From positions 1 to 52,128 of the IMG/VR virus record IMGVR_UViG_3300046002_005091: a stretch of DNA of 52,128 nt; one strand, given 5' to 3'. Of this stretch, positions 7,142 to 7,492 are shown piece by piece. The notes under the pieces were generated by a model. The model worked only from the letters and a program-made list of their open reading frames with translations, was not told the DNA's origin and searched no databases. This stretch comes from a virus. Positions within the stretch are counted from its first letter, which is position 1. Each line of letters opens with the position of its first letter. Both the position numbers and the translations under genes were made by a program.

Positions 7142-7202
7142 CGTTGTTTTTTAGCAACAATGTTAAAAAAGACTTGACAAATTACACTTACCTTGTTATA
7201 CT
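7142..7202 (+). promoter_or_regulatory. Promoter P4 of the Ro-like gene with upstream inverted repeat
   Basis: CGTTG-N8-CAACA (7142-7159) precedes TTGACA (7174-7179), a 17-bp spacer and TATACT (7197-7202). The repeat centre is 23.5 bp from the -35 box, one base closer than at P1-P3. It gives a leader of about 280 nt before the Ro-like start codon. Confidence 0.8.
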
Positions 7203-7221
7203 ATGTTCTTGTTAGTTTATT

Positions 7222-7334
7222 AGGATCGGTTCAGCAACATTACTAAACTAAGGATGGATGGTCAGAGATAACTTCATAGACTATCACAGTGAGTTTGGAT
7301 TTCTCACGTAAAACAAAAAGTACAAAACGATCCT
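7222..7334 (+). ncRNA. TTCMGCAA-family RNA d (leader of the Ro-like gene)
   Basis: 7-bp stem AGGATCG/CGATCCT (7222-7228/7328-7334), one nucleotide, TTCAGCAA (7230-7237). A longer insert contains GTGAG/CTCAC (7289-7293/7303-7307) with loop TTTGGATTT. 3' side CGTAAAACAAAAAG, flank GTTATAT. It starts about 13 nt after the expected P4 start site. Confidence 0.5.
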
Positions 7335-7352
7335 GTTATATATGAAAGTTTT

Positions 7353-7470
7353 AGGTTAAGTTCCGCAAAATAAATTAATGCTAATGAAAACCGAAAGGCC
7401 GGTTCGATTCCGGGTTCCCTTAGGGGATAAAGTGTAATGGTTGCACATTGGTACGCAAAAAGTTTAACCT
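7353..7470 (+). ncRNA. TTCMGCAA-family RNA e enclosing permuted tRNA arms
   Basis: 7-bp stem AGGTTAA/TTAACCT (7353-7359/7464-7470), one nucleotide, TTCCGCAA (7361-7368). Inside, a T-arm (CCGG-TTCGATT-CCGG) and acceptor 3' strand come before an acceptor 5' strand (GGGGAT) and D-arm (GTG...CAC), joined by TTA. TTGGT after the D-arm can pair with ACCGA before the T-arm as an anticodon stem. This is the order of a circularly permuted tRNA, or two broken tRNA halves back to back. 3' flank GTTG, then the Ro-like gene. Confidence 0.45.
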
Positions 7471-7492
7471 GTTGATTGAAAAGGAGATTATT

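What the first reader, a model, noticed from the sequence alone, without database searches (positions are those of the whole stretch)
7197..7492. Ro-like gene leader is built of two tandem structured RNAs
From promoter P4 the transcript carries element d, then element e, then the Shine-Dalgarno site: about 280 nt of leader made almost wholly of one RNA family. If the Ro-like protein binds this family, the leader could autoregulate its own translation or release RNA ligands together with the mRNA.
Basis: inference. Interest (0 to 1): 0.7.

Follow-up and report, generated by a model that had tools for sequence, protein, structure and literature searches.

The report
tRNA-mimic RNAs leading phage Ro gene
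A phage gene for a Ro-like RNA-binding protein is preceded in its own messenger by two members of a widespread phage RNA family, in which one conserved clamp carries interchangeable imitations of tRNA parts, so the protein probably meets its RNA partners in its own leader.

Summary
From a near-consensus promoter (7174-7202) the predicted 284-nt leader of the Ro-like gene is 84% two tandem elements, d (7222-7338) and e (7353-7474), e ending just before the Shine-Dalgarno site. Both belong to a real RNA family: AG + 6-bp variable stem + CAGCAA-type motif ... stem + UGUU. In 115 of 127 five-prime anchors the exact complement follows (null about 10). The family tracks the Ro-like gene: 4 of 4 Ro-positive and 0 of 14 Ro-negative relatives carry it; 25 of 38 Ro leaders versus 2 of 360 other ORFs have an element before the start codon. 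Fold comparison confirms a Ro60/TROVE protein. The clamp carries swappable guests imitating tRNA: anticodon arms (a, b) or a circularly permuted tRNA body (e), as in bacterial YrlA. Best reading: a modular Y-RNA-like partner family of phage Ro, with leader copies placed for autogenous control and possible RNA release. Binding and regulation are untested. tRNA-like Y RNAs beside Ro are known; anticodon-arm guests, conserved leader placement and the match of the clamp to dictyostelid Class I RNAs (40.4 bits, just under Rfam's cut-off) appear new.

The parts
7174..7202 (+). sigma-70 promoter TTGACA-17-TATACT (P4), extended -10
   Evidence: consensus scan 11/12; similar promoter upstream of leader elements in five relatives
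7222..7338 (+). element d: clamp GGATCG/CGATCC (7223-7228/7328-7333), motif TTCAGCAA 7230-7237, guest of ~90 nt with a T-loop-like hairpin 7289-7307
   Evidence: homologue in L007
7353..7474 (+). element e: clamp GGTTAAG/TTTAACC (7354-7360/7463-7469), motif TTCCGCAA 7361-7368, tail TGTTG 7470-7474; guest is a circularly permuted tRNA
7390..7452 (+). guest of e: anticodon-stem strands 7390-7394/7448-7452, T arm 7399-7413, acceptor 7414-7419 + loop TTA + 7423-7428, D arm 7432-7446
   Evidence: 38 of 62 such guests are called tRNA by ARAGORN after rotation, 0 of 62 unrotated
7481..7486 (+). Shine-Dalgarno AAGGAG of the Ro-like gene
   Evidence: sequence, conserved position
7493..8914 (+). Ro-like (TROVE + vWA) protein, 473 aa; Pfam DUF2828/DUF7788
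   Evidence: Pfam; AlphaFold model matches 9kop TROVE E 4.7e-8, 2i91 Ro60 E 3.3e-6, 9nen human Ro60 E 1.4e-4
2745..2809 (+). element a: clamp with anticodon-arm mimic TTAGA-CTTTTAA-TCTAA (2772-2788, anticodon UUU)
3556..3613 (+). element b: clamp with anticodon-arm-like hairpin TTTCA-ATGTTAA-TGAAA (3580-3596, GUU); also the Rfam RF01414 match
4347..4409 (+). element c: clamp with pseudoknot-like guest GCTA...TGTC-TAGC-GACA (4370-4393)
   Evidence: 28 similar guests

Best explanation
The leader consists of two Y-RNA-like partner RNAs of the Ro-like protein. Each is a conserved clamp (AG, 6-bp structure-only stem, CAGCAA-type motif, stem, UGUU) that presents a swappable guest; the guests imitate tRNA parts (anticodon arm, circularly permuted tRNA body) or other structures. 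Shown here: the family, the tRNA mimicry of many guests, the Ro fold, the co-occurrence with Ro and the conserved placement before the SD. Inferred: the Ro-like protein binds the clamp. When free protein is in excess over its RNAs it sits on element e, whose 3' tail ends 6 nt before the SD, and blocks ribosome entry, so that protein output is matched to the clamp RNAs made from the tRNA array; cleavage between UGUUG and the SD would at the same time free d and e as small RNAs and leave a translatable mRNA. The tRNA guests are then offered to tRNA-recognising proteins, most simply as bait or competitor (tRNA decay, modification or anticodon nucleases). My step-wise estimates: family real 0.97; tRNA mimicry 0.93; clamp binds Ro 0.8; leader autoregulates 0.5; decoy against anticodon nucleases 0.25.
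For: Clamp covariation 115/127 vs null 10.4. Association: of 18 relatives chosen by helicase or polymerase, the clamp half-motif is in 4/4 with Ro and 0/14 without; all 17 clamp-bearing contigs of at least 55 kb encode Ro; 87 of 93 clamp motifs lie on Ro's strand within 17 kb upstream, 9.5 expected. Leader: element ending 8-60 nt before ATG in 25/38 Ro clusters vs 2/360 other ORFs, p 6e-28; the leader copy keeps stem GGTTA[A/G] in 21/33 vs 34/415 elsewhere while guests range 28-150 nt; clamp, motif and tail invariant in 10 e-type leaders while the guest varies. Isolates: 4 elements in the Ro leader of Aeromonas phage APT65, 3 in Listeria P100, 1 in Campylobacter CP30A, 4 just downstream of Ro in Felix O1 and in Klebsiella KP13-26; antisense 0, shuffles about 0. 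Guests: anticodon-arm type 88/215 vs 2.8 in shuffles, loop size 7 dominant; permuted tRNA 62/199 vs 0, 32 distinct acceptor stems all paired vs 1.5 when permuted. Ro fold. Bacterial YrlA has the same plan: basal stem that binds the Ro orthologue Rsr plus a tRNA-like module (PMC8394870) that is circularly permuted (PMC11472068).
Against: No binding, expression or processing data. Several Ro-bearing isolates (LeBron, Ben, CoN_Ph5, 2S-4, Ci1, OC, Milchi, DLP6) show no recognisable clamp near Ro, and in Felix O1 and KP13-26 the elements follow Ro instead of leading it, so leader control cannot be universal. The recalled bacterial Y-RNA motif CNNUUGACC is in 0 of 448 elements. Folding energies are ordinary.
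Confidence: 0.5

Rival explanations
1. The leader elements are simply Y-like small RNAs co-transcribed with Ro for correct stoichiometry and cut out by host RNases; their nearness to the SD has no regulatory meaning.
For: Elements also lie between tRNAs far upstream and downstream of Ro in Felix O1 and KP13-26.
Against: Nearly fixed distance of about 24 nt to ATG in the window's close relatives, a sequence-conserved leader clamp despite guest swaps, and near-absence before other ORFs are not needed for mere co-transcription.
Confidence: 0.3
2. The guests are decoys: anticodon arms and tRNA bodies shield the phage's tRNAs by occupying host anticodon nucleases or other tRNA-targeting defences, with Ro as carrier.
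For: Anticodon-arm guests with at least ten different anticodons, UGU and UUU commonest; [quoted passage not shown] the window carries 27 tRNA genes.
Against: No nuclease target shown; YrlA was not cleaved in that work; pseudoknot and other guests are unexplained. Not exclusive with the main reading.
Confidence: 0.25
3. The leader is a sensor: a tRNA-binding or tRNA-cleaving factor recognises the guest of d or e and thereby switches Ro translation on or off, in the manner of tRNA-mimic operators.
For: tRNA-like guest next to the SD; known precedent is the E. coli thrS operator (own knowledge).
Against: The leader guest is not conserved in type: permuted tRNA, anticodon arm or large domain occupy the same clamp in relatives, so a fixed guest-specific sensor is unlikely.
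Confidence: 0.1
4. The elements are decayed or spacer tRNA pieces left by rearrangement of the tRNA array, without function.
For: They sit between tRNAs and resemble them.
Against: Strong clamp covariation, 0 complete elements on the antisense strand, dependence on the Ro gene and conserved position.
Confidence: 0.03

Closest known systems
Bacterial Y RNAs (YrlA) with the Ro60 orthologue Rsr
   Same: Encoded beside a Ro-fold protein; basal stem joining the 5' and 3' ends; circularly permuted tRNA-like module (element e and the other permuted guests, 62 found)
   Different: Different clamp sequence motif; many copies per genome; many guests are anticodon arms, pseudoknots or large domains; copies built into the Ro mRNA leader; no match to any Rfam Y RNA family in the window
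Dictyostelid Class I RNAs (Rfam RF01414)
   Same: Starts with (A)AG, 6-bp stem conserved in structure not sequence with an invariant first G, CAGCAA-type motif next to the 5' stem, hypervariable interior, ends CUGU (PMC7919456); 20 of 33 phage records ring at E <= 1e-3, 0 of 14 controls
   Different: Best score 40.4 bits, under the cut-off 41.5; bacterial-type promoter in place of DUSE; reported as restricted to dictyostelids; partner described there is the RRM protein Rnp1A
Autogenous tRNA-mimic operators such as E. coli thrS (own knowledge)
   Same: tRNA-like structure in a leader just before the SD, proposed to be bound by the gene's own product
   Different: Here the conserved part is the clamp, and the tRNA-like guest is exchangeable

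Membership tests
Ro60/TROVE protein | HEAT-ring TROVE plus vWA fold | tested here: met
   Top three full-length PDB matches are TROVE/Ro60 structures, E 4.7e-8 to 1.4e-4; sequence identity only 11-16%
Y RNA | encoded next to a Ro orthologue | tested here: met
Y RNA | stem pairing the 5' and 3' ends | tested here: met
Y RNA | tRNA-like module (YrlA type), circularly permuted | tested here: met
   element e type and 62 guests in all; permutation of YrlA per PMC11472068
Y RNA | known bacterial Ro-binding sequence (GNCGAAN0-1G / CNNUUGACC, recalled from memory) | tested here: not met
   CNNTTGACC in 0 of 448 elements; hence called Y-RNA-like, not a member of the described bacterial family
Y RNA | physical binding to Ro | not testable with these tools
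   no experiment available
Dictyostelid Class I RNA | Rfam covariance model over the gathering score | tested here: not met
   best 40.4 vs 41.5 bits
Dictyostelid Class I RNA | start AAG, 6-bp covarying stem, adjacent CAGCAA motif, end CUGU | tested here: met
   phage elements compared with the description in PMC7919456; phage elements have UAG or AAG before the stem
Dictyostelid Class I RNA | dictyostelid genome with DUSE promoter element | tested here: not met
   phage DNA with a sigma-70 promoter; DUSE itself was not searched for

The most novel reading that the evidence does not exclude
Phage Ro proteins carry a modular arsenal of clamp RNAs whose guests are tRNA decoys that can be swapped to meet different host tRNA-targeting defences, kept in balance by a leader operator; and the same clamp is the core of dictyostelid Class I RNAs, so that a DUF2828-type Ro protein would be the missing partner of that RNA class.
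Probability: 0.2. Interest if true: 0.93.

Novelty: new variant of a known kind. Interest (0 to 1): 0.76.

Why it matters
It extends the Ro-Y RNA partnership to a modular, multi-copy system in which one clamp presents many tRNA imitations, including isolated anticodon arms, and puts the clamp into the protein's own leader. It gives direct tests in culturable phages of what Ro-Y RNPs do during infection, and it offers a concrete hypothesis (a Ro-like partner) for dictyostelid Class I RNAs, whose mechanism is still open.

Tried and rejected
Single-sequence folding to prove d and e: uninformative. Pseudoknot CAGCA with UGUUG: rejected on inspection, because UGUUA tails occur with CAGCAA unchanged. 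Bacterial chromosomes as a source: 24 pattern hits in 257 Gb, none with the full stem, so chance. A 7-bp stem requirement in distant phages missed most real elements and was relaxed to 6. Filing under Rfam RF01414: under the cut-off. Formal pair counting on the e alignment was left out because MAFFT misaligned the acceptor loop in L032; stem permutation tests were used instead. Primary papers on bacterial Y RNAs (PMC10870794, PMC4201824) are not held.

Full report
What was checked. The finding says that the leader of the Ro-like gene consists of two tandem RNAs, d and e, of a family with further members a-c. The sequence bears this out. A TTGACA-17-TATACT promoter with extended -10 lies at 7174-7202; a very similar one recurs upstream of the leader elements in L006, L007, L011, L012 and L032. 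From a start near 7209 the leader is 284 nt, of which d (7222-7338) and e (7353-7474) fill 239; the SD is 7481-7486 and the ATG 7493. Elements a, b and c lie between tRNA genes at 2745-2809, 3556-3613 and 4347-4409.

Is the family real? Each element reads AG + 6-nt stem + one to three nt + CAGCAA (CCGCAA in e) ... complementary stem + UGUU. To avoid circularity I took only the 5' half in loci found with the protein and asked whether the exact complement + TGTT follows: 115 of 127, against 10.4 when stems are permuted among elements, 2.0 when they are scrambled, and none on the opposite strand. Folding energies of single sequences are ordinary, so the case is comparative.

What does it go with? 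The gene product has DUF2828/DUF7788 matches; an AlphaFold model (mean pLDDT 75.7) finds TROVE and Ro60 structures as its only matches at E <= 0.001. A clamp pattern scan of viral contigs that ignored Ro gave records of which 29 of 40 tested encode Ro, including all 17 of at least 55 kb. Conversely, of 18 relatives picked by their helicase or polymerase, the four with Ro have the clamp and the fourteen without Ro have none (probability 1/3060). In Ro-positive records up to 364 kb, 87 of 93 clamp motifs lie on the same strand within 17 kb upstream of Ro. In bacterial genomes the pattern occurs only by chance (24 hits, none with the full stem). Distant cultured phages agree: four tandem elements in the Ro leader of Aeromonas phage APT65, three in Listeria P100, one in Campylobacter CP30A, and four just downstream of Ro in Felix O1 and in Klebsiella KP13-26; eight other Ro-bearing isolates show none.

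Why the leader? An element ends 8-60 nt before the Ro start codon in 25 of 38 sequence clusters and before 2 of 360 other ORFs. The leader copy has its own conserved stem (GGTTA[A/G] in 21 of 33, against 34 of 415 elsewhere) although its guest may be 28 to 150 nt long; in ten e-type leaders clamp, motif and UGUUG tail are invariant while the guest varies. In some relatives a short clamp-like hairpin AGGCG...CGCCTGTT lies directly before the SD. This is what an operator read by a clamp-binding protein would look like, but it is an inference.

What do the guests look like? Of 215 guests up to 45 nt, 88 contain a stem of at least 5 bp closing a 7-nt loop of anticodon-loop type (2.8 expected from shuffles, maximum 10), with anticodons UGU, UUU, GUU, UCU, GGA, GUA and others; 7 is by far the commonest loop size. 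Of 199 guests of 55 nt or more, 62 are circularly permuted tRNAs: T arm, acceptor closed by a short loop, D arm, opened at the anticodon loop into the clamp (0 in 20 shuffles). The 32 distinct 7-bp acceptor stems all pair, against 1.5 after permutation, and rotation makes ARAGORN of 62 as tRNA, against none unrotated or shuffled. Element e is of this type. Element c belongs to a class of 28 pseudoknot-like guests; d resembles larger guests that carry a T-loop-like hairpin.

Comparison with the known. Bacterial YrlA has a basal stem that binds the Ro orthologue and a tRNA-like module (PMC8394870) that superposes on tRNA with a circular permutation (PMC11472068); Y RNAs of this kind have been mentioned in phages (PMC7765460), and from memory Chen et al. 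2014 reported likely Y RNAs near Ro in many bacteria and phages. So e works like YrlA and the family is Y-RNA-like; the known Ro-binding sequence, as I recall it, is absent, so I do not file it as a member of that family. New here, as far as the held literature goes, are the isolated anticodon arms as guests, the interchangeable guests on one clamp, and the conserved leader placement. The clamp also matches the published description of dictyostelid Class I RNAs (AAG start, 6-bp structure-only stem with fixed first G, 11-nt motif, CUGU end; PMC7919456; the Rfam consensus shows the motif as CCUUACAGCAA). Rfam's model scores element b at 40.4 bits against a cut-off of 41.5, and 20 of 33 phage records ring with none of 14 controls. 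This may be convergence; it is a lead, not membership.

Mechanism. Most likely the Ro-like protein binds clamps; surplus protein occupies e and blocks its own translation, and processing releases d and e (inferred). The tRNA guests probably engage tRNA-recognising proteins. A role as competitor of an anticodon nuclease has been suggested for YrlA (PMC7790460) and would suit phages rich in tRNA genes, but nothing here tests it.

Noticed in passing
373-495, 2507-2660, 6805-6908, 8935-9020: A second family of spacer RNAs between tRNAs: long terminal hairpins, several with TTGAAACACATT/AGTGTGTTTCAA-like arms; z-scores -3.3 and -5.0 for two of them. Inner parts may hold T-arm-like hairpins.
   Followed up: no
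window 4370-4393 and 27 other guests: Pseudoknot-like guest GCTAA-N-GTC-TAGC-GAC whose hairpin loop can pair upstream; identity unknown.
   Followed up: partly
L018, L023, L032 (about 3.5, 4.1 and 0.9 kb upstream of Ro): Clamps that hold an almost whole, unpermuted tRNA (Lys UUU, Arg UCU types) with a shortened acceptor stem.
   Followed up: no
20 elements, e.g. in L020, L023, L030, L049: Large guests with a T-loop-like hairpin (GTGAGTTTCGATTTCTCAC) followed by CAAAAAGTAGGAAA before the 3' clamp; window element d resembles them; function unknown.
   Followed up: partly
L259, L260 (Serratia phage BF, Xanthomonas phage XbC2): In these jumbo phages an RNA ligase gene lies two genes upstream of the Ro-like gene.
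   Followed up: no
L040, L043, L051, L053 leaders: A mini hairpin of the type AGGCG...CGCCTGTT without the CAGCAA motif lies directly before the Ro SD, like a clamp that lost its guest.
   Followed up: no
window 1-9300: 27 tRNA genes in one array with four promoters matching at least 11 of 12 consensus bases at 219, 2225, 2343 and 7174.
   Followed up: partly
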